NCBI GenBank assembly: GCA_027577595.1
Contig: JANBRJ010000150.1
Coordinates: 1-23,719, forward strand
Reading direction: 5' to 3'
Length of the DNA stretch: 23,719 nucleotides
DNA from: Coemansia sp. RSA 487
Lineage: Eukaryota > Kickxellomycota > Kickxellomycetes > Kickxellales > Kickxellaceae
The notes beneath the pieces were generated by a model. That model was given only the letters and a program-made list of their open reading frames with translations. It did no database searches and was not told the origin of the DNA. Below are positions 2,804 to 21,971 of the stretch, piece after piece; position 1 is the first letter of the stretch; the number at the start of each line of letters is the position of its first letter. The position numbers and the translations under genes are program-made.

Positions 2804-5800
2804 ATGACAAATATCGACCAAATTGAAGCTTGTCGCTTTTGCTTCGAAGAGGGCTCAGATGACAATCCGCTTTCCCATCCTTGCAAGTGTAGAGGAAGTA
2901 TAGGGTTTGTACATAAAACATGGTATTTATTTCTTGTTTTTTTAGCAATGTGCATTTCTTAAAAGAGAACTTATGCTTTACTAACTTGTTTTATGTTGTT
3001 TTTGTAGTCTAGATGAGTGGATAGATCATGCTAACAATAGGCAAGTAGCAGTAAAAGCTAAAAGTATTTATTGCTTACAATTTGGCTTGGTTACATTATA
3101 CTAATTTTATCAACTTTGTTGTATTGCCTATGTAGGGAATGCACTGTGTGTCAGCATCCTTTTGTGTATGCTGATATTCAAGACCTTGACTCTCTTAGAC
3201 AAAGCATAAATGTGGCAACCATCCAACAGGCAATTGCAACCATGGCCAAATGGGGTATATATGCAACGTATAGTAGCATAATGTTTGTGTTGGAATACAT
3301 ATTCTTGCCATACATTGTGTATTGGATGCTCTGTGGGTTTTTTTGGCTGGCATTTGGTATTTTGCCATCATCTGAACTTCAGCAATACCCTTGTTCATTT
3401 GGTTTGACTGCAAAGAGATTTGAACAGCCCATATCGTGGAAGCAGTGGGCTGAGAATTTCAAGCAGGGATATATGGAAAACAATGTTGTTTCATTTTCTG
3501 GGCTTTTGGATGGTGCAAACTACTCAATCTATGTGCTTTACAACATAGCCAATGCAGCACTTTCTATGGGTTTATGGATAGCTGGTAAACTAGCACTTGG
3601 TACAGTGTCTGAATTACAAAAGAATGATACCACTGAGACAGCTGCAGAGTTTTTGGCAAAGTCAGTAGAGGGAGGTATCATCCTTGCTGCTGCTATGGTA
3701 GGTAATTACGCTGTTTTGAATACTTTTAATTGGGCTAAAACAGTATTCAAAAATTTTGCTGGTGATAATGAATCAGCAGCATCAGCCCCTGAGACTCGTC
3801 ACCAAATTATCCAGCAACAGATACAGGAGCAACAAAGACTTTTCATGATTCAGATGGAGGAAGCAAATGATGACAATACTTGGGCTGAGTGGGTAGGTAG
3901 CTCTGTTAGCCATATTTTCAGCGATGATTTTATTATAACATTTGTTGTAAAGTGCATGGTAACGTTTATTCTATTACCACTTTTTATTGGGAGATTTGCA
4001 GTATTTGTTATGTCCAGATATTCCACAGTGCTTACATTTGGTGATAGCCATACTCTAAAGCTTATGAGTGAGGTAATAGAAACTATTGTGTGGATAGAAT
4101 TACCAAGTCTATTAAAACAATTCGTTGAGTATATTGGTATTGAAATTGTGATATTGATGACTCCAATTGTGATGCACATTTCAAAGCTTTTTGACATTGC
4201 TAACCCACTCGAATGGGCACATGACAGTATCATAAGTCTAGTTAAGAGTATGGCTCTAGAGAAAGTCCATAAATTGATAATACAAGTTGATTCAGGATCG
4301 AACATTTACAGTCGCCAGTTTACAATCATTTTAGGCTACGCGTGCATTATAACAGTAATTATTCAATGCTTCAATTTTGCTCCTAAGCAATTCCATGGAC
4401 ACAGGTGTTATTTGACTTTAAAGCATGCTGCGTATACCCTTTTTACCATTATAGCAGTAATATGTGATTATTTATCAAATATTGCAGTTGGGTATACATT
4501 CCGCCTGTTGCTTGTACCTATTCTCAGCAAAAATTCAGCATATAAATTGTTTGACTCAATGTTTACAAATCCATGGACTACAATAGCTCTTAATATGATG
4601 CTTGGTATGATTGTGACAATTGTACATAACCTTCAATTTCGAGTACTATGTCTTTTCCATCGTCCTGGCTTGCCTTGGAGCATAGTAATCAATGAAAATA
4701 TTGCTGACAAGATACAAAGCGCAGTCCGCAATAATAAGGTCCTTGGGAGCATAAGGCGGATATTTACAAGCGTTTTAATATTGGCCTTGTGTGGTCTGTT
4801 TGGCATGTCTGCACCATTGGCAGCAATAGCAAAACTTGTGCCTGGGCTCTTTCCAATAACTTTGGATGGATTTAGCCTATCGGTCAATGTGTACACAATG
4901 AATCTGTTTATTTGTGCATGCCTAGCATACATGGCATTGTATACACATATTAACTATTCAGTGTTTAAACTATGCACATATATCCAGCTACAGCTTGCAC
5001 ACATATTTAGGCTGTCAGAGTATGTTCTTGGAGAGCGCAGCATTGTGGATGAGGGTACATGGACAATCAAGGGCATTCCTTGGCTGTCTGTGCCTGTGGC
5101 ATATCTGTGGATGCCAAATGGCACAATAAATGACACATTTGCTTCAATTCCATTTGAATATAGAAATGATAATACCAAAATACAAGAGGCTATAGATTTG
5201 GCACTGGCGGATAAATACCCATATTTGTCATTTACACTTGATGGCACAATCTACAAAGTTCCATGGACAAACGCTGTAAAGAAAACACCAGGTGTGTCAA
5301 TTGAGAAGAGAGTGGATAGCAGGGATGATTGCACTGATGAGGAAGATTACCATGTAGTATATATGCCTTTAGATAGATTAGAAAAGAGAAGCATGTTCGG
5401 TTTTGTCAGCATTGTCACCTTCCAAGCACAATTGCTTTGTTTGCTAGCCATGGCATTGGTCATTGGTAGATGCATTTGGATAGTTGATGGGATACAAGGA
5501 AACAAGCCGGCAGCCTTTTATTTTGGTCTAATCCTCATAATGGCATTTGCTACTACTGCAGGTGCATTTATGGCAAGATTCGGAGATGGATTTAATCAAA
5601 TTTTTGCACGATTGCACAAGATTGTATTGAGTACATGCAGCATGGTAGCCATCAGTCTAGCGTTCTTCACTGTTGTTCCATTGCTGGTTGGCAAGGTTTC
5701 CAGACTTTACTTGTCCACAATTTATACGTATTACTATGCGGGAGGTGATTCATTGCCAGATCAGCAGGTGGCACATTTTTGGGAAATGACCAACATCAAT

Positions 5801-6223
5801 CTGATCGATCTACTAGCATCTGCAATCCTTGTAGCTGTTATAAGAGCATTGACATCAGGCGAGGATGTAGTTGATGAAATGCTTGACGTATTTGACCATA
5901 GTCTGGATGAGATAAAGATTTGGGCAACTGTTAAGATCCTAGCACTACCAGTTGTTGCTCCAGCACTTGCTCTGTGTGTACTTCCCTATGCATTGGTTGT
6001 CAAGGACATGAGTCGAGCCAACACTTTGACTGTAGAAGCATGCCAGCTGGTTTTAGAGTTCAAGGACATCTCATTGCTTGCCAAGAACTGCCGAATCATT
6101 GTGTTTGCTGCAGCAATCGCACTATTTGTATATGTGATCATCAGATTGTTCCGAACCACACATAGCACAGTTCGCAATAGAATGGTTAGAGATAATCAGC
6201 AGCTGGTCAACTATAACGAATAA
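2804..6223 (+). CDS. SSM4: Doa10/Ssm4 (MARCH6) family RING-CH ubiquitin ligase
   Basis: Spliced model: exons 2804-2922, 3008-3040 and 3136-6223, giving 1079 residues. The N-terminus forms a complete RING-CH domain: Cys10, Cys13, Cys27, Cys29, His37, Cys40, Cys53 and Cys56, with the conserved Trp44. Both splice choices are fixed by this pattern, since Cys40 is completed across intron 1 and Cys53 follows intron 2. The rest is a long polytopic membrane protein with many hydrophobic helices. The C-terminal tail contains NQQLVNYNE, resembling the conserved C-terminal element of the family. Doa10 proteins sit in the ER and inner nuclear membrane and ubiquitinate misfolded or short-lived proteins for ER-associated degradation. 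The length lies between the human (about 910) and yeast (1319) members. Codon use is distinctly AT-rich compared with the gene next door. The stop lies only 51 bp from that of the convergent HELLS gene. Confidence 0.93.
2923..3007 (+). other. Intron 1 of the Doa10 gene (GT-AG)
   Basis: The 85-nt intron has donor GTATTT, a TACTAAC branch site at 2979-2985 and acceptor TTGTAG. Splicing joins TG to T to form the Cys40 codon, followed by LDEW, the expected RING-CH sequence. Confidence 0.9.
3041..3135 (+). other. Intron 2 of the Doa10 gene (probable GC-AG)
   Basis: The 95-nt intron has donor AG|GCAAGT, a TACTAAT branch site at 3099-3105 and acceptor ATGTAG. The reading frame needs a phase-2 donor, and the nearby GT sites (for example 3045) give the wrong phase. 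The GC donor has the consensus of GC-AG introns and restores R-E-C-T-V-C, the last zinc-ligand pair of the RING-CH domain. Confidence 0.8.
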
Positions 6224-10497: not shown

Positions 10498-11820
10498 CTA
10501 GTTGTAGTGGTGGGTCTCCTCAGGAACGCGACCGCGCAGGTATGCCACGCCAGAGCCCTTGACATAGATGTCATCCCACAACTCATGGGAGGCAGGCTCA
10601 GGAATAGCCTTCGCCTTTGCCAGCGCGCCGTCAATGAGGTTCTTGGCCTCCTTGTCGATTGCCTTCAGATCGGCCTCGGTGGCAACGCCGGTCTCGATGA
10701 GTCGCAGCTTGTACCCGGTGATCGGGTCGGAGGTGGACCGCATGTGCTGCACCTCCTCACGCGTGCGGTAGGTGGTTCCGGGGTCGGACATCGAGTGTCC
10801 GCCGTAGCGGTACGTCTTCATCTCGATAACCATGGGCCCCTTTCCAGAGACTGCAAACTCGCGCGCATACGCGATGGCCTGGCGCACAGCCAGAACGTCC
10901 ATCCCGTTGACGCGGATGCCCGGGATGTACTGGCCCCTCGTGTAGTAGTCGGTGTTGGCAGCAGCGCGCGCCGCGGCGGTTCCCATCCCGTACTTGTTGT
11001 TCTCGCACACAAAGATCACAGGCAAGTCCCACAGCTTGGCCATGTTGAACGACTCGAATACCTGTCCCTGGTTGGCCGCGCCGTCGCCGTAGAGAGCCAC
11101 CGTGCACGACTGCGATTCGTTGTACTTTTGCGCAAACGCAATGCCTGCTCCCAGAGGCACCTGCGCTCCAACGATTCCGTTGCCGCCGTAGAAGTTGGGC
11201 GCATACATATGCATCGATCCGCCCTTGCCCTTGGATACTCCGTCACGGCGCCCCATAAGCTCCGCAAGGATCCCCACCGGAGACCCGCCGCGCATGTAGG
11301 TGAATCCATGGCACCGGTACGCAGTGATGATGGCATCCTCCTTGGTCAGCGCGCCCTCCACTCCGACCGGCACCGCCTCCTGGCCCGTGCACAGGTGGCA
11401 GAACCCGCGGATCAGCTTGTGCTTGTACGACGAATCCGCCGCCATCTCCAGTCTGCGCACTGTTTGCATCGACTGGTACAGCGCGATCGCATCGGCCTTG
11501 CTAAGCGTCACCGACGATGCGGGCGTATCGATGTTGTAGCCCTCGAATGTGCCGTCGGCGAAATCAAAAGTCACAGACTCGGACGAAGACGACATGAAGC
11601 GGCGTGGAGCCATTGCCGAGGTCTATTGGCTTTTTTGATTGTGTGAGAGAGGGAGAGAGAGAAAAAAAAAAGAGTGCGTTTTTAGTATTCTGCCGTGTGC
11701 GAGATTCTACTTTTCATGAGTGCATCATTTTGGTGAGTTGCTAATTACTGGGCTTACCCTGAGAAGGACCCTCGATTGCGGGTGTGCTTTGAGCGACCTT
11801 GCGAAAGCGGTACGAAGCAT
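10498..11820 (-). CDS. PDA1: Pyruvate dehydrogenase E1 subunit alpha, mitochondrial
   Basis: Spliced model: exon 1 at 11820-11758 and exon 2 at 11622-10498, giving 395 residues. Exon 1 encodes MLRTAFARSLKAHPQSRVLL plus R, a classic Arg-rich mitochondrial presequence; it joins TSAMAPRRFMSS, and cleavage near RRF or FMSS would be typical. The enzyme decarboxylates pyruvate with thiamine diphosphate in the matrix, together with E1-beta. Visible motifs are RGFCHLCTGQEA, the cofactor motif GDG (200-202) through Asn205 to ENN (228-230), and YRYGGHSMSDPGTTYR. In mammals and yeast that last loop carries the serine phosphorylated by PDH kinase, here Ser298 or Ser300. An exon-2-only model starting at 11613 would lack most of the presequence. 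A long open frame on the opposite strand is a codon-bias shadow. Confidence 0.95.
11623..11757 (-). other. Intron of PDA1 splitting the mitochondrial presequence
   Basis: On the minus strand the donor is AGG|GTAAGC at 11757 and the acceptor is CCAATAG ending at 11623. The intron is 135 nt long and phase 0. A TACTAAA branch-like site lies at 11687-11681, followed by a strong pyrimidine tract (T and CT runs at about 11646-11673). The join is in frame, and the combined N-terminus is a convincing presequence. Confidence 0.88.
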
Positions 11821-12974: not shown

Positions 12975-14504
12975 ATGTTGTTTCCTGCACCTACCTTTAT
13001 ACGTCGGGTGCTCAATCGCCCCGCCACCGTGCTAGCCAGCACGGATACACCGACTCCGCCTCTGGCTGTGGACGACAATATGGCCAATATCGGCCCAAGC
13101 TCCGACTCGATCGCCCAAGCCAACAATGACGACATTTCAAGCGATTTCGTCGAAACATCGTCAATTGAAAAGGGAATGCCCTTGGAAGAAGCAACTCCTG
13201 AAAAGGACGCTATCCAAGATATTGTCGACCTTGAAAACCAGGCGCTAAGCGAAGAGCAGCAGCTTCAGCAGCAAGCGGGGGAAGCGCATTTGCCGCGAAA
13301 TGCCGGCTTTCTGCGCTCGTTCTCCAACGTTGTATGTATCATCATCGGAACCGGGTGTCTGCAAATCCCGTACGCGTTTGCGAAAACAGGGTGGATTGGC
13401 GTTGTTATCATTGTTCTGTCGGCCTTTATCGGGTCATACACGGGCATCCTCACGATTCGCTGCCTTTACTACCAACCCGGTGTGCGCCTCCATTCGTTCC
13501 CTCAAATAGGACGTGCTGCGTTTGGCCCATGGGGCCAGTACATCACCCAGTTCTTCAACTACCTGTATTCTCTGGGCACCACATGCCTATACATCATCCT
13601 GTCCGGCCAATTCATCCACAGCCTGCTGGTAACGCTGGGCGTTGGCGTGAGCCAGAAAGTGTGGATGATCATTGTCGCCATCGTCATGTGGATCCCTGTG
13701 GCTATTCTGAAAGAAATGTCTGAGGCCGCAGTGTTGGCCATCTTCGGACTGATTGCATCTATTGTCGTGATCATTATCTCCACCGTTATGTCATTGATTG
13801 ACCCATACACAGAGATGCATCCGACAGAGCCTGTGCCGGGTCACGACATTGCCATAGGCATTGGCATCCCCGTCGCACTGTCGTCCATTGTGTTTAGTTT
13901 TGCCGGGTCCGTTGTATACCCGCATGTCGAGGCATCGATGAAGAAGCCGCGCCAGTGGCCAAACGTCGTGTTTGCATCGATGGCCTTTTGCGCTGCAGCG
14001 TACCTTCTTATTGGAATTACCGGCTACTGGGCTTACGGCGACCAAGTGGTTTCGCCAGTCCTGGACTCTATCCCAACCGGCGCACCTGCAACGGTCGCTA
14101 AAATCATGATCACTTTGCATGTCATCATCGCTGCGCCTATCATGCTGCTTAGCTTCTATCTTGAGGTCGAGAAGCAGTGGGATATCACTGCGGAGCGCCT
14201 GGGCAAGAAGCGCGAATTCACCATCCGCTTGATCTATCGTTCTGTGGTGGTAGCCATCGTGTGCGGGATCTCGCTTGCAATCCCTTACTTTTCAGACTTC
14301 CTGAGCCTTATCAGCTCCCTGGCGTGCGTCACTATGTTTGCTATCATCCCGGTTGTCTGCTACCTAAAGCTATATGGCCACCGCGTGGCCCCGTGGTACG
14401 AAAAGATCTGGATGGTGCTTGTTTTGGCTATTGGCGCAGTTGCATGTATCTGGGGAAGCATCGACGCTATAAAGTCGCTGATTAAAGACACAAAGAGCGG
14501 CTGA
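12975..14504 (+). CDS. AAAP-family amino acid transporter, copy 1
   Basis: A 509-residue intronless membrane protein of the amino acid/auxin permease superfamily (Pfam Aa_trans type, related to fungal vacuolar Avt proteins). Residues 1-105 are hydrophilic, with acidic and Gln-rich parts, and likely cytosolic. The transporter core starts at LPRNAGFLRSF (106-116), and the first helix contains CIIIGTGCLQIPYAFAKTGW. About ten or eleven hydrophobic helices follow. Conserved-looking landmarks are the long FPQIGRAAFGPWGQY loop, SFAGSVVYPHVEASMKKPRQ and GITGYWAYGDQV. The family moves amino acids with protons across vacuolar or plasma membranes; substrate and location cannot be read from the sequence. 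It is followed 597 bp later by a close paralogue in the same orientation. Confidence 0.88.
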   Translation: MLFPAPTFIRRVLNRPATVLASTDTPTPPLAVDDNMANIGPSSDSIAQANNDDISSDFVETSSIEKGMPLEEATPEKDAIQDIVDLENQALSEEQQLQQQAGEAHLPRNAGFLRSFSNVVCIIIGTGCLQIPYAFAKTGWIGVVIIVLSAFIGSYTGILTIRCLYYQPGVRLHSFPQIGRAAFGPWGQYITQFFNYLYSLGTTCLYIILSGQFIHSLLVTLGVGVSQKVWMIIVAIVMWIPVAILKEMSEAAVLAIFGLIASIVVIIISTVMSLIDPYTEMHPTEPVPGHDIAIGIGIPVALSSIVFSFAGSVVYPHVEASMKKPRQWPNVVFASMAFCAAAYLLIGITGYWAYGDQVVSPVLDSIPTGAPATVAKIMITLHVIIAAPIMLLSFYLEVEKQWDITAERLGKKREFTIRLIYRSVVVAIVCGISLAIPYFSDFLSLISSLACVTMFAIIPVVCYLKLYGHRVAPWYEKIWMVLVLAIGAVACIWGSIDAIKSLIKDTKSG

Positions 14505-15101: not shown

Positions 15102-16592
15102 ATGACTTTCGCGACTGCTTTTATACATCGGGTGCTCAATCGCCCCACCACTGTGCCGCCATCCAGCACTGATGCACAACCGCATGCCGGTAATATCGGC
15201 CCAAACACTGACTCGATTGTCCAAGCCAATAACTACATCTCAAGCGACTTTGTCGAAACACCATCATCAAGAGAAAAGGGGATACCTGTGGACTATGCGA
15301 CGCCCGAGAAGGATTCAATCCAAGATATCGCTGAATTTGAGAACCAAGCACTAAGCGACGGACAAGAAGCGGCACAGTTGCCGCGCAATGCCGGGTTTCT
15401 GCGCTCATTCTCAAGCATCGTGTGTATCATCATTGGCACAGGGAGCCTGCAAATTCCCTATGCGTTTGCGAAAACCGGATGGATTGGTGTCATTTTCGTG
15501 GTTCTGTCGGCGCTCATTGGCTCTTACACTGGAGCACTTACCATCCGCTGCTTGTACTACCAGCCTGGCATGCGCCTTCATTCGTTTCCTCAAATAGGGC
15601 GTGCTGCGTTTGGACCGTGGGGCCAGTACGCTGCCCAGTTCTTCGCCTCCTTGTATTCGCTGGGAACCACGTGCCTGTACATTATCCTTGCGGGCCAATT
15701 CATTCACGGGCTAGTGATTACACTGGGTGTCGGTCTGAGCCAAAAGGTGTGGATGGTCATTGTGGCTGTCATCATGTGGATCCCTGTGGCTATTATGAAG
15801 GAAATGTCCGAGGCTGCGATCCTGGCCATTTTCGGGCTGCTTGCATCTGTCGTTGTCATTGTTATCTCCACCGTCATGTCGCTGGTCGACCCATACACAA
15901 AGATGCATCCTGCCGATCCTGCGCCAGACCACAGCATCGCCATTGGCATCGGCATCCCTGTTGCGCTGTCATCCATTGTCTTTAGCTTTTCGGGAAATGT
16001 TGTATACCCGCATGTCGAGGCATCGATGAAGAAGCCGCGCCAGTGGCCAATGGTCGTGCTTGCGTCGATGGTTTTTTCAGCGGCCGCATACCTCCTCATT
16101 GGAATTACCGGCTACTGGGCTTACGGCGACCAAGTGGTTTCACCGGTTCTCGATTCGATCCCAACAGGAGCACCAGCAACGGTTGCCAAGATCATGATTA
16201 CTTTGCATGTCATCATTGCTGCTCCCATTTTGTTGCTGAGCTTTTACCTGGAAATCGAGAAGCAGTGGAATATCACTGCAGAGCGCCTTGGGAAAAAGCG
16301 CGAGTTCATAATCAGGCTGGCTTACCGCTCCGTGGTGGTTGCCATTGTATGTGGGATTTCGCTTGCAATCCCTTACTTTTCGGACTTCTTGAGTCTTATC
16401 AGCTCTCTGGCATGCGTAACCATGTATGCCATCATCCCTGTAACTTGCTACCTAAAGCTATACGGCCACCGCGTGGCTCCATGGTACGAAAAGATCTGGA
16501 TGGCCTTTGTTCTAGCAATCAGCGCCGTTGCGTGCGTCTGGGGAAGCATTGATGCTATACGGTCACTTATCAAAGACGCTCAAGGAAATTAG
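15102..16592 (+). CDS. AAAP-family amino acid transporter, copy 2
   Basis: A 496-residue intronless paralogue of the protein at 12975. The core helices are about four-fifths identical by eye. The N-terminal hydrophilic part keeps the frame FIHRVLNRP near its start but is shorter and more diverged. The same landmarks recur: CIIIGTGSLQIPYAFAKTGW, FPQIGRAAFGPWGQY, VVYPHVEASMKKPRQWP and GITGYWAYGDQVVSPVLDS. Start and stop align with copy 1, so both look intact. Two blocks of 52 and 44 bp are identical between the copies, including every silent site, which suggests local gene conversion. The tandem arrangement points to an unequal-crossover duplication, possibly with divergent regulation because the promoters differ. 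Confidence 0.88.
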   Translation: MTFATAFIHRVLNRPTTVPPSSTDAQPHAGNIGPNTDSIVQANNYISSDFVETPSSREKGIPVDYATPEKDSIQDIAEFENQALSDGQEAAQLPRNAGFLRSFSSIVCIIIGTGSLQIPYAFAKTGWIGVIFVVLSALIGSYTGALTIRCLYYQPGMRLHSFPQIGRAAFGPWGQYAAQFFASLYSLGTTCLYIILAGQFIHGLVITLGVGLSQKVWMVIVAVIMWIPVAIMKEMSEAAILAIFGLLASVVVIVISTVMSLVDPYTKMHPADPAPDHSIAIGIGIPVALSSIVFSFSGNVVYPHVEASMKKPRQWPMVVLASMVFSAAAYLLIGITGYWAYGDQVVSPVLDSIPTGAPATVAKIMITLHVIIAAPILLLSFYLEIEKQWNITAERLGKKREFIIRLAYRSVVVAIVCGISLAIPYFSDFLSLISSLACVTMYAIIPVTCYLKLYGHRVAPWYEKIWMAFVLAISAVACVWGSIDAIRSLIKDAQGN

Positions 16593-17167: not shown

Positions 17168-17168
17168 T

Positions 17169-17248
17169 TGAACAGAGTGGGATTCGAACCCACGCCCCGA
17201 AAGACTGCGGCCTAAACGCAGCGCCTTAGACCACTCGGCCATCTGTCC
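17169..17248 (-). tRNA. tRNA-Leu (anticodon UAG)
   Basis: An 80-nt gene on the minus strand. The acceptor arms GGACAGA and TCTGTTC pair with one G-U, and the discriminator is A. The A box TGGCCGAGTGG and B box GGTTCGAATCC are intact. The anticodon stem CTGCG/CGCAG encloses the loop TTTAGGC, so the anticodon is UAG, reading CUA-type leucine codons. The long variable arm (CTTTCGGGG region) and A73 are typical of tRNA-Leu. No intron is present and CCA is not encoded, as expected for a eukaryotic nuclear gene. Confidence 0.95.
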
Positions 17249-17302
17249 ATTTTTCTTAACCCAAAGGCTTGTCGAAGTTCTGAGAGCTAACAAGCTATGC
17301 CA

Positions 17303-17440
17303 TCCGCATGCTTTCTTTTGAACATAAAGTTCTGACAAAAGATGCGGAAAGCGATGTACCATATTTTCCATCTCCATGCCCCCTGCTTTTTCAACAGAGA
17401 AATCAGATGTTTTCCGCATCTAAAAATAGGTTGTCCGCAT
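17303..17440. promoter_or_regulatory. Cluster of four TCCGCAT motifs upstream of the CYSTM genes
   Basis: The 7-mer TCCGCAT occurs at 17303-17309, 17413-17419 and 17434-17440 on the plus strand. It also occurs as its reverse complement ATGCGGA at 17342-17348. Three copies extend to TCCGCATC. Four copies in 138 bp is far above chance. The region lies between the tRNA and the TATA box of the first CYSTM gene, so a role as a transcription-factor site for that gene is plausible. The factor is not identified. Confidence 0.5.
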
Positions 17441-17632
17441 CTCATCAAATGGGGGCTGTGACTTTAATTGGTCGGCTGACTGTCCCGCAGCCATCTCACA
17501 CTGACCGCACTGTGACGACACACTGGGGTTGGGGGTAGAAACAAAAAATAGAAGACTGAACAAAAGAGGAAGGCGTGTGGTGGGACCTTTTGTTGCTCGG
17601 CTTTGGCGATTCCATTCACTGCAAAGTTTGCA

Positions 17633-17640
17633 TATAAAAG
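17633..17640 (+). promoter_or_regulatory. TATA box of CYSTM gene 1
   Basis: TATAAAAG lies 128 nt upstream of the start codon at 17769. An inverted CCAAT (ATTGG) is found further upstream near 17468. A strong consensus TATA box suggests a highly regulated, inducible gene. Confidence 0.6.
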
Positions 17641-17768
17641 AGCTGACCATTTTCCTCCGTTCCAGACATTCATGCTACTCTTTCTCTCTTACTTTTTATT
17701 TGTTTCGCAATAATAGTACATATAACCTTTTACATCGTATCGTCATTATTATCTACTCTTTTCAAAGC

Positions 17769-18005
17769 ATGACTAACAACATCAGCCCACCGCAGGAGCC
17801 CCAATTGGCTGCAGGACAACAGGCATATGCTATGGAGACACCTAATTACACAGCGTCGTACAGCACAGAAGGCATCAACAAGGACGGAGCAACCGCACAA
17901 GAACAAGACCCTGATGCATTGAGACTAAGGGGTGGAGGAGGATGCTGCGAAGGAATTTGCTGGGGTATTTGCGCCTTCTTTACCTGCGAAATCTGCTGCT
18001 GCTAA
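17769..18005 (+). CDS. CYSTM-like small Cys-rich protein 1, with LRLRGG motif
   Basis: A 78-residue protein. The N-terminal 50 residues are polar (Gln, Thr, Ser, acidic) with no Cys. Then comes LRLRGGGG (51-58), followed directly by a Cys-rich hydrophobic tail, CCEGICWGICAFFTCEICCC (59-78), with eight Cys. The layout matches the CYSTM class, tail-anchored modules found across eukaryotes and linked to stress or metal tolerance. LRLRGG is the exact C-terminal hexapeptide of ubiquitin, placed just before the membrane module. The start at 17769 is the first ATG after the TATA box and is favoured over longer open reading upstream, which lacks an ATG in the leader. It is first of three such genes in a row. 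Membrane insertion and palmitoylation are inferred. Confidence 0.8.
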   Translation: MTNNISPPQEPQLAAGQQAYAMETPNYTASYSTEGINKDGATAQEQDPDALRLRGGGGCCEGICWGICAFFTCEICCC

Positions 18006-18155
18006 TATATAAGGGCTCCTTTTCTGTTCCATTCCATTTTTTTCTTTTTATACCAACTTTAACTTTCAGTAGAAAAATATAAGTAAAATAAACCACCCCA
18101 TCTATTTGGTTGGATCTATCTTTTGCACTCTTTTCGTTTTGTATAATCAGTAAAC

Positions 18156-18317
18156 ATGCTTGGACGAGGAGCAGTCGTTCCTGGCGCCAGAAGGCACTAC
18201 CACAGGCGCTACCACAGGCACCACCACCACCCCCACCCAGTAAGACGCGCCTGCGGTTGCTGCGACTGTCTAGTGGGGCTTTTGGCTACAATCTGTTGCC
18301 TGGAGGTTTGTTGCTGA
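18156..18317 (+). CDS. CYSTM-like small Cys-rich protein 2, histidine-rich
   Basis: A 53-residue protein in a frame that is easily missed. After MLGRGAVVPG it has an Arg/His/Tyr-rich segment (residues 12-30) containing eight His, four of them consecutive. It ends with a Cys-rich hydrophobic tail, ACGCCDCLVGLLATICCLEV plus CC (32-53), with eight Cys. The His-rich head beside the CYSTM-like tail suggests possible metal binding. A CAGTAAG at about 18238 resembles a splice donor, but reading straight through gives the Cys-rich tail, so no intron is placed. It lies 150 bp after gene 1 and 313 bp before gene 3, same strand. No exact family match is claimed. Confidence 0.7.
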   Translation: MLGRGAVVPGARRHYHRRYHRHHHHPHPVRRACGCCDCLVGLLATICCLEVCC

Positions 18318-18630
18318 ATCCCGGAGACCTGCGGAAGACGTTTTTATTGGCTGTTCGGAACACAATGTGCTGAAACAATTTAAAAGCATGTGGCTCACAC
18401 GCCTTGGCGCATCCACACTTTTTCATTTTTTTGCTCTCCTCTTTCATTTGCACTCTCCCTCTCCCCACCATACGTGGAGTCTTTTTTTTTTTTGAAATAA
18501 AGCTCTCGTTCCTATCTTTTTTGCTTCGCTTCTTTTTCTCGCTTTTGTTTTTAGTCTTTATTAATGCAGCTTTTCTTATCTCTATTTGTATAGACACTTT
18601 TTTTTTCTTTTTCTTTGCAAATAAACGAGC
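18318..18630. promoter_or_regulatory. Spacer between CYSTM genes 2 and 3
   Basis: This 313-bp, T-rich spacer contains an AATAAA polyadenylation-like signal at 18496-18501. Long pyrimidine tracts before the third start codon probably form its core promoter and leader. No other gene is seen. Confidence 0.45.
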
Positions 18631-18912
18631 ATGGGCTATAACAACAACAGCGGTTACTACGGCAATGGATACAGCCAGCCGCCACCCCCACAAGGAAACT
18701 ATTATGGCGGTCAATACTACGGTCAGCCGCAAGGAGCTCCACCACCTCAGCAGCAACCGTACGTCGTGTATGAAACACAGCCGCGCTACCAACAGCAACA
18801 GCGACCATATGGCGGCAGCGGCGGCGGGGCTGGAGCCGGCGCAGGCTTTTGCTGCGGTCTTCTCGCCTGTTGCGCATTAGAAGAGATATGCTGTTTGTGC
18901 GACGCTTGCTGA
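18631..18912 (+). CDS. CYSTM-like small Cys-rich protein 3, Pro/Gln/Tyr-rich
   Basis: A 93-residue protein with the classic CYSTM layout. The low-complexity head is rich in Gly, Tyr, Pro, Gln and Asn (PPPPQGNYYGGQYYGQ, QPRYQQQQRPYG). A Gly/Ala linker follows, then a Cys-rich hydrophobic tail, FCCGLLACCALEEICCLCDA plus C, with nine Cys at the very end. In known CYSTM proteins the head is cytosolic and the tail associates with the plasma membrane, with proposed roles in stress resistance and metal handling. The start is the ATG at 18631 just after a T-rich leader. AATAAA at about 18959 could be its polyadenylation signal. Confidence 0.85.
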   Translation: MGYNNNSGYYGNGYSQPPPPQGNYYGGQYYGQPQGAPPPQQQPYVVYETQPRYQQQQRPYGGSGGGAGAGAGFCCGLLACCALEEICCLCDAC

Positions 18913-18947
18913 CATCCTTTTACTTATCTCTCCTTCTTTTTTCGTTC

Positions 18948-19241
18948 TTAATTGTTGAAATAAAATGCGTAACAAATGTATCGCGTGTCATCTGATATGT
19001 TGAAAATCACACTTGCAAATGGAAAATCGAAAAAAGGGTTGCGTAAATCAAACGTTTCAATGCGATCTCCCGCATAAACGTGCCAATCATATTTTGTCTT
19101 TGGTACATTTGCATTGTTAGACGTTGCTAGGCATTGTTGGGAACCAGCGAGCATCATCCAGTTCTCTAGTTTTGTTGGGTTTGTTGTTCCACTGGCGTTG
19201 GAAAGCATACAAAGACGCATGTCCATGTGATAAAAACCCAT
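18948..19241 (-). CDS. Possible small gene of unknown function
   Basis: A 97-codon frame on the minus strand, with its ATG 115 bp from the divergent RED/IK start and its stop 36 bp from the end of CYSTM gene 3. Composition looks protein-like: three Trp, spread charges, balanced codons. Segments such as YDWHVYAGDRIETFDL followed by NPFFDFPFASVIF suggest an alternating beta-strand pattern. No signal peptide, membrane helix or known motif was seen. It fills an otherwise empty gap. Chance is still possible, because the frame also covers the probable 3' end of the CYSTM transcript. Confidence 0.35.
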   Translation of the reverse strand: MGFYHMDMRLCMLSNASGTTNPTKLENWMMLAGSQQCLATSNNANVPKTKYDWHVYAGDRIETFDLRNPFFDFPFASVIFNISDDTRYICYAFYFNN

Positions 19242-19356
19242 TGATGGCTGTTATAGCTTTGGATGATCAAGAAAAAGTAAGCGAAAAAGAAGCAAAAGGG
19301 TAAGCTCAACTATCAAACCATTTATAATTTGTGTACCTTTGTATATTTTTGGGTTT

Positions 19357-21683: not shown

Positions 21684-21971
21684 TTGCTAAACTTAATAAA
21701 GAAGCATTTGCATATCTGTGTCAAAGAAATTAAGCCAGAAATAGATTTAATTTGGAATCGATGGTGCTGGCAAGAAAATACTGAATTTTAATATCCACAA
21801 ATTTGTGGATTAAACCAGGATTGAATGAGATACTGGGCAGAATCCAATTATTATTTTGCTGTAAAGTCCTCTGTTTTTGTAGGGTAGCCCAAATTTATCC
21901 TGAGAAGCATATTAAAGTCTCAATAGCCCCAGCATAAGCGTCATAATTACAAGCATTTTTTGCTTGCATGA

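What the first reader, a model, noticed from the sequence alone, without database searches (positions are those of the whole stretch)
17769..18912. Tandem trio of CYSTM-like micro-proteins with unrelated heads
Three consecutive same-strand genes (78, 53 and 93 residues) each end in a hydrophobic tail with eight or nine Cys, but their N-terminal parts share nothing: polar with LRLRGG, His/Arg-rich, and Pro/Gln/Tyr-rich. The tails and the order are seen directly. CYSTM modules (Venancio and Aravind family) are known mostly as dispersed genes linked to stress and metal tolerance. A local cluster with swapped heads suggests a small functional system, for example a set that co-assembles at the membrane through the Cys tails, or a head-shuffling family. 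The middle gene is short enough that standard annotation would probably miss it.
Basis: partly seen in the sequence, partly recalled or inferred. Interest (0 to 1): 0.8.

Follow-up and report, generated by a model that had tools for sequence, protein, structure and literature searches.

The report
Tandem trio of cysteine-tailed mini-proteins
Three neighbouring tiny genes each end in a cysteine-packed, membrane-loving tail behind quite different front parts; they look like a small local cluster of stress-type membrane anchors, a kind already known, with an unusual mix of heads.

Summary
Three + strand ORFs (17769-18005, 78 aa; 18156-18317, 53 aa; 18631-18912, 93 aa) each have exactly 8 Cys, all within the last 22 residues. 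None of the other 105 window ORFs of 40 aa or more has more than 5; 0 of 9061 ORFs in 100 shuffled windows reach 7. The heads share nothing detectable. The CYSTM label is only partly supported: gene 1 scores 12.4 bits against Pfam CYSTM (cut-off 25.2; 0 of 30 tail shuffles hit it), but its 22-residue tail alone, and genes 2 and 3, give no hit. All three tails hold [DE][ILVM]C[CF], as does the end of Arabidopsis CYSTM1. Genes 1 and 2 may be old tandem duplicates. Tandem CYSTM trios and heteromers are in print for Arabidopsis (PMC8049917), and a highly variable linker before the tail is part of the family's description (PMC10217909), so a new 'head-shuffling system' is not needed. No fungal genome could be searched, so conservation, synteny and transcription of gene 2 are untested. 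Best reading: a local cluster of CYSTM-like membrane-anchored stress or metal micro-proteins.

The parts
17633..17640 (+). TATA box (TATAAAAG) 136 nt before the gene 1 ATG
   Evidence: chance of at least one in shuffles of 17420-17768 is 0.030
17769..18005 (+). gene 1: 78-aa protein, polar acidic head with LRLRGG (residues 51-56) and tail GCCEGICWGICAFFTCEICCC
   Evidence: Pfam CYSTM 9.2 bits whole protein, 12.2 and 12.4 bits as 36- and 40-aa fragments, no hit for the last 22 residues alone
18006..18013 (+). TATA box (TATATAAG) directly after the gene 1 stop codon, 150 nt before the gene 2 ATG
   Evidence: chance of at least one in shuffles of the 150-nt spacer is 0.073; a minus-strand box (TATAAAAA, 18052) lies in the same spacer
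18004..18155 (+). gene 2 promoter and 5' region, aligns collinearly with 17631-17768
   Evidence: p 0.005 (400 shuffles, best of 15 pairs of upstream stretches compared); 4 of 4384 other windows score as high one way, 0 of 4391 the other
18156..18317 (+). gene 2: 53-aa protein, His/Arg-rich head (8 His, net charge +7 from Arg/Lys) and tail GCCDCLVGLLATICCLEVCC
   Evidence: codon usage does not support it
18631..18912 (+). gene 3: 93-aa protein, Pro/Gln/Tyr/Gly-rich head (with QPYVVYETQ) and tail FCCGLLACCALEEICCLCDAC
   Evidence: no TATAWAWR box within 300 nt upstream

Best explanation
The locus is a small local cluster of three separately transcribed CYSTM-like micro-protein genes. Each product has a free cytosolic head and a C-terminal Cys-rich hydrophobic tail that anchors it in a membrane, probably the plasma or vacuolar membrane. 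The tail may insert as a short helix, be S-acylated, or both; its thiols and acidic residue would bind metal, buffer redox, or pair with other tails. Genes 1 and 2 probably arose by tandem duplication of one unit (TATA box to stop codon), after which the heads diverged or were replaced; gene 3 has the P/Q/Y-type head of some yeast CYSTM proteins (recalled) and shows no link by descent. Likely role: heavy-metal or related stress tolerance at the membrane. Shown: ORFs, tails, chance level. Suggested: CYSTM kinship, duplication of genes 1 and 2. Inferred: expression, membrane, role.
For: Tails far above chance. A 40-aa fragment of gene 1 hits Pfam CYSTM at 12.4 bits and 0 of 30 versions with shuffled tail hit it; a 14-residue piece of a genuine Arabidopsis CYSTM tail scores 14.2 bits in such a scan, so scores below the cut-off are to be expected for short pieces. 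All three tails have [DE][ILVM]C[CF], as does the AtCYSTM1 end LAAMCCCCALDICF; joint chance in tail shuffles 0.0003, but the motif was chosen after seeing the tails, and the less biased test gives 0.011. TATA boxes at -136 and -150. 5' DNA of genes 1 and 2 similar (p 0.005) and tail DNA similar (p 0.007; 0.029 with codon shuffles); unit 1 against unit 2 scores 31, above all 4320 and 4296 other windows, whose best are 29 and 28.5. Yeast CYSTM proteins rise under Mn, Co, Ni, Zn and Cu, and one lies in plasma and vacuolar membranes (PMC10217909).
Against: No protein reaches the Pfam cut-off; the last 22 residues of gene 1, and genes 2 and 3 in every form tried, give no CYSTM hit. None has 3-4 consecutive Cys ahead of the acidic residue. 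Alignment to the AtCYSTM1 tail is not significant (p 0.77, 0.46, 0.10), and a hand-made CYSTM core pattern is met by genes 2 and 3, not 1, and by 13-20% of shuffles. Codon usage does not support gene 2. The 5' similarity is the best of 15 pairs tested; 3' DNA shows none (p 0.06 to 0.46); part of the tail DNA alignment is out of frame. No STRE, HSE or YAP element upstream of the genes (the one AGGGG lies inside gene 1). The two yeast proteins were not induced by H2O2, and their knock-out effects were called not significant. No conservation evidence.
Confidence: 0.55

Rival explanations
1. A co-assembling functional system: the three tails form mixed oligomers in one membrane, and the unlike heads (acidic, His/Arg-rich, P/Q/Y-rich) give the complex different binding partners. 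(A stronger form of the best explanation, not exclusive of it.)
For: Adjacent, same strand, all tails 8 Cys; heteromers reported for Arabidopsis CYSTM/PCM proteins (PMC8049917); two yeast members were suggested to act as a complex (PMC10217909).
Against: No interaction, co-expression or conserved order could be tested; tandem duplication alone would explain adjacency of genes 1 and 2; tails share little beyond composition.
Confidence: 0.15
2. Soluble metal-chelating peptides (metallothionein-like), with Cys clusters, and in gene 2 His as well, binding Cu or Zn; no membrane anchoring.
For: C-x-C-C-x-C and the 8-His head in gene 2; unfavourable octanol sums for the tails.
Against: The tails are hydrophobic (best 19-residue Kyte-Doolittle means 1.53, 2.07, 1.88), with uncharged cores such as CLVGLLATICCL; Pfam at E up to 10 gives CYSTM for gene 1 and no metallothionein for any, though its filters drop weak matches.
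Confidence: 0.12
3. Only genes 1 and 3 are genes; the middle ORF is a decayed duplicate or an unexpressed frame.
For: Codon usage of gene 2 is poor: full score -0.175 (88 of 96 background ORFs as high), and 4 of its 5 other frames have higher synonymous scores. It is short, and its tail DNA alignment to gene 1 contains compensating gaps.
Against: 8 Cys in the tail and the [DE][ILVM]C[CF] end are unlikely in a random frame; TATA box 150 nt upstream; A at -3; 60% GC against 29% and 38% in the flanking spacers. The codon test is weak: 2 of 9 training genes score below the background mean, and 2 of 5 other frames also beat gene 3's own.
Confidence: 0.2

Closest known systems
CYSTM family (PF12734; Venancio and Aravind 2010, paper not held, known here through PMC10217909 and PMC8049917)
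   Same: Small protein, variable stretch before a C-terminal hydrophobic Cys-rich tail with an acidic residue near its end; gene 1 weak Pfam match.
   Different: Below the Pfam cut-off (gene 1) or no match (genes 2, 3); Cys singles or pairs rather than 3-4 in a row before the acidic residue; Cys also after it.
Arabidopsis PCM1-3 and PCM4-6 tandem arrays (PMC8049917)
   Same: Three CYSTM genes side by side, twice in one genome; products of 71-82 aa; homo- or heterodimers reported for several members.
   Different: The PCM genes form a group of high DNA similarity; here the heads have no detectable similarity.
S. cerevisiae Mnc1 (YBR056W-A), YDR034W-B, YDL012C, YBR016W, YDR210W (PMC10217909)
   Same: Fungal CYSTM tail-anchored proteins; two of them shown to rise under heavy metals; gene 3's P/Q/Y-rich head resembles the YDL012C type (recalled, not compared).
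   Different: Their systematic names place them at separate loci (reading of the names, recalled); no His-rich head is described in the two parts of the paper read.

Membership tests
CYSTM (PF12734) | Pfam score at or above the curated cut-off of 25.2 bits | tested here: not met
   gene 1 9.2 to 12.4 bits, none for its last 22 residues; genes 2 and 3 no CYSTM hit at E up to 10
CYSTM (PF12734) | score above that of composition-matched shuffles | tested here: inconclusive
   gene 1: 0 of 30 tail shuffles hit CYSTM (HMMER filters drop weak matches); genes 2 and 3 have no score to compare
CYSTM (PF12734) | C-terminal TM helix with 5-6 Cys followed by an acidic residue (as given in PMC10217909) | tested here: inconclusive
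   8 Cys each, and an acidic residue followed by [IV]CC in all three; hydropathy ambiguous; single-sequence AlphaFold models of genes 2 and 3 too poor to judge (mean pLDDT 53.7 and 54.6); gene 1 not modelled
CYSTM (PF12734) | 3-4 consecutive Cys ahead of the acidic residue | tested here: not met
   single C before E in gene 1, CC-L-E in gene 2, CC-A-L-E in gene 3 (sequence)
CYSTM (PF12734) | N-terminal cytoplasmic beta-strand element | tested here: inconclusive
   gene 3 has QPYVVYETQ by eye, but its poor model shows no strand; the poor gene 2 model shows none either
CYSTM (PF12734) | tail-anchored, membrane-localised, stress-induced | not testable with these tools
   needs RNA-seq and tagged proteins
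metallothionein-like peptides | match to a metallothionein model | tested here: not met
   no metallothionein family among Pfam matches at E up to 10 for the three proteins
ubiquitin-like fusion (gene 1 LRLRGG) | ubiquitin-like domain before LRLRGG | tested here: not met
   no ubiquitin-family match at E up to 10

The most novel reading that the evidence does not exclude
A head-diversifying locus: one promoter-plus-tail cassette was copied in tandem while the coding head between them was replaced, giving a set of membrane anchors that pair through Cys tails and display different heads (acidic with a ubiquitin-like LRLRGG junction, His-rich metal-binding, P/Q/Y-rich). In gene 1 the LRLRGG-GG-CC junction could even let a ubiquitin-type protease free the head from the tail.
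Probability: 0.1. Interest if true: 0.65.

Novelty: new variant of a known kind. Interest (0 to 1): 0.38.

Why it matters
CYSTM-type proteins have no agreed molecular mechanism (stated in PMC8049917). A compact trio with the same tail type and three quite different heads is a natural experiment: swapping heads and tails in a laboratory yeast would tell whether tail or head sets partner, membrane and metal. It would also show whether genes of about 50 codons with such tails are missed by annotation.

Tried and rejected
Relatives: no hit for gene 1 in viral contigs or genome contigs, gene 3 in viral contigs, gene 2 in viral contigs or the second transporter in viral contigs. These are viral and prokaryotic collections, so this says nothing about fungi. 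NCBIfam: none for the three. PDB by sequence, gene 3 only: none at E up to 1. RNA families at gathering scores: only the tRNA.

Structure: single-sequence AlphaFold of genes 2 and 3 gave poor models, with a helix at residues 42-52 of gene 2 and 87-90 of gene 3; no fold search was made.

Splicing: no GTRAGT or GTRWGT donor on the + strand in 17420-19356, so no sign that these are exons of a larger gene; other donor forms were not scanned.

Gene 3 as a third duplicate: upstream DNA against gene 1 p 0.15 and against gene 2 p 0.24; tail DNA p 0.055 and 0.72; 33 of 4384 other windows match gene 1's 5' DNA as well as gene 3's does, and 7 and 270 of 4416 match the tails as well: not supported. DUF2076 for gene 3 (13.3 bits, cut-off 38) rejected as a composition match in the low-complexity head. 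The ubiquitin-precursor reading of LRLRGG is kept only as a remote idea.

CYSTM control: the genome search with PF12734 rang in 0 of 14 control genomes, so it says nothing. Literature: seven searches with CYSTM terms or yeast CYSTM gene names listed 30 of 248, 20 of 71, 15 of 27, 5 of 5436, 10 of 10, 3 of 3 and 12 of 4631 papers; in these listings I saw no title or opening of an abstract that describes a tandem CYSTM cluster in a fungus. Papers opened: PMC10217909, parts 1 and 2 of 4; PMC8049917, 12 passages and section 22; PMC10030403, passages; PMC11133566, one passage; PMC13205671, passages. The rest were seen as listings only.

Full report
What is there. Three ORFs on the + strand at 17769-18005, 18156-18317 and 18631-18912 encode 78, 53 and 93 residues. 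Each has exactly 8 Cys, all in the C-terminal tail: GCCEGICWGICAFFTCEICCC, GCCDCLVGLLATICCLEVCC and FCCGLLACCALEEICCLCDAC. The heads are polar and acidic with LRLRGG (gene 1, net charge -4), His/Arg-rich (gene 2, 8 His, net +7) and Pro/Gln/Tyr/Gly-rich (gene 3, net +1). Each ATG is the first after an in-frame stop.

Chance. Among 108 window ORFs of at least 40 aa, these three have 8 Cys in the last 22 residues and no other has more than 5. In 100 dinucleotide shuffles of the whole window (9061 ORFs) none reaches 7; in 1000 shuffles of 17420-19356 (6525 ORFs) none reaches 7. Three side by side on one strand is therefore not chance.

Are they genes? GC rises to 51, 60 and 57% in the ORFs against 29 to 43% in the spacers and flanks. 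A codon table from nine window genes gives fair synonymous scores for genes 1 and 3 (10 of 96 background ORFs score as high for each) but not for gene 2 (26 of 96; 88 of 96 on the full measure). The test is weak: two of the nine training genes score below the background mean, and of the five other frames 1, 4 and 2 score higher than the frame of genes 1, 2 and 3. TATAWAWR boxes stand 136 nt before gene 1 and 150 nt before gene 2, none within 300 nt before gene 3. Chance in shuffles of each stretch is 0.030 and 0.073. Such boxes occur 19 times on the + strand of the window, ten of them beyond position 21900, and one on the minus strand (18052) lies in the spacer between genes 1 and 2. Of 12 window genes checked, three (genes 1, 2 and the second transporter) have a box within 300 nt upstream. 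All three ATGs have A at -3. No GTRAGT or GTRWGT donor lies in the region. Gene 2 is probable, not shown.

Kinship of the tails. Beyond Cys composition, protein similarity is marginal: 3-way p 0.03, gapped pairs 0.06 to 0.51, ungapped pairs 0.12 to 0.43. All three tails hold [DE]-[ILVM]-C-[CF] (EICC, EVCC, EICC), as does the published Arabidopsis CYSTM1 tail (DICF; DNA in PMC13205671, translated). Joint chance in shuffles is 0.0003, but the motif was picked after seeing the tails; a less biased form (a shared reduced 4-mer with an acidic residue) gives 0.011, and any shared reduced 4-mer gives 0.12. Direct alignment to the CYSTM1 tail is not significant (p 0.77, 0.46, 0.10), and a hand-made core pattern, met by genes 2 and 3 and not by gene 1, is met by 13 to 20% of shuffles. 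Genes 1 and 2 also share the spacing CC[DE]-x12-[DE][ILVM]CC with an uncharged middle; gene 3 does not.

Pfam CYSTM. Gene 1 scores 9.2 bits whole, 12.2 bits as a 36-aa fragment and 12.4 bits as a 40-aa fragment. None of 30 copies of that fragment with the tail shuffled hits CYSTM. Its last 22 residues alone give no hit, so the match leans on the linker too. The cut-off is 25.2. A 14-residue fragment of the genuine Arabidopsis tail scores 14.2 bits. Genes 2 and 3 give no CYSTM hit in any form tried. They are therefore described as CYSTM-like and not filed as members.

Origin. DNA from the TATA box to shortly before the ATG is collinearly similar between genes 1 and 2 (p 0.005, 400 shuffles; the best of 15 pairs among six upstream stretches), and so is tail DNA (p 0.007 with dinucleotide shuffles; 0.029 with codon shuffles). 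DNA downstream of the genes shows no clear similarity (p 0.19, 0.06, 0.46). Against real windows, unit 1 with unit 2 scores 31, above all 4320 and 4296 other windows, though the best of these reach 29 and 28.5. The 5' comparison is reached by 4 of 4384 windows one way (one place) and 0 of 4391 the other, and the tail comparison by 0 of 4416 one way and 2 of 4416 the other. Windows overlap, so these are not independent counts. As a caution, the upstream stretches of the two amino-acid transporters nearby, which are 80% identical in protein, show no such similarity (p 0.81), and part of the tail DNA alignment is out of frame. Tandem duplication of genes 1 and 2 with later divergence or replacement of heads is the simplest reading, suggested and not proved; gene 3 shows no such link.

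Mechanism. By analogy with CYSTM proteins, the tail would anchor the protein with its head in the cytosol. For the family, proposed actions are metal chelation, redox change or altered membrane properties through thiols and the acidic residue, and pairing between members (PMC10217909; PMC8049917). Two yeast members are induced by Mn, Co, Ni, Zn and Cu but not by H2O2; one lies in plasma and vacuolar membranes, the other inside the cell; knock-out effects in excess Mn were called not significant (PMC10217909). A Pneumocystis CYSTM gene appears among genes tested by RT-qPCR for copper response (PMC11133566, one passage). Anchoring here is not clear-cut: Kyte-Doolittle means of 1.53 to 2.07 favour it, octanol sums of +1.3 to +2.6 do not; a lipidated short tail would fit both (inference). 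AlphaFold without relatives was uninformative.

Known or new. Tandem CYSTM trios exist in Arabidopsis, heteromers are reported, and a highly variable linker is part of the family's description. New here, as far as the listings and passages seen go, is the mix of unrelated heads, one of them His-rich, on one tail type at one locus, in what is probably a fungus. That assignment is inferred from the gene set (RED, MARCHF6-like, SNF2, E1 dehydrogenase) and was not tested. No fungal genome collection was open, so conservation and synteny, the decisive tests, are undone.

Noticed in passing
12975-14504 and 15102-16592: Two tandem amino-acid transporter genes (Aa_trans), 80% identical proteins, while their upstream DNA shows no similarity.
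   Followed up: partly
17168-17249, - strand: tRNA-Leu gene about 0.5 kb upstream of the trio; ARAGORN printed no anticodon letters.
   Followed up: no
2804-6223, + strand: RING-variant ORF (2804-2962, 42.1 bits) followed by a 993-aa ORF with a weak MARCHF6 C-terminal match (25.7 bits, cut-off 28.8): probably one spliced Doa10/MARCHF6-type ubiquitin ligase gene.
   Followed up: partly
21593 and 22084, + strand: Two short frames with similar beginnings (MSDGGKQS and MANDGGKSAS, read by eye), about 0.5 kb apart, perhaps first exons or gene relics; an ORF holding the second was scanned in Pfam without a match.
   Followed up: no
10585-11646, + strand: A 353-aa open frame lies antisense over the E1 dehydrogenase gene (10498-11613, -), probably a by-product of that gene's high GC3 of 0.79.
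   Followed up: no
1540-1662, - strand: 40-aa ORF ending in GCCIIL, a possible prenylation-type end (recalled motif); no Pfam match at E up to 0.01; may be an exon.
   Followed up: no
17600-17620 and 18401-18419: Similar stretch upstream of genes 1 and 3 (GCTTTGGCGATTCCATTCACT and GCCTTGGCGCATCCACACT), a possible shared regulatory site; the overall alignment is not significant (p 0.15).
   Followed up: no
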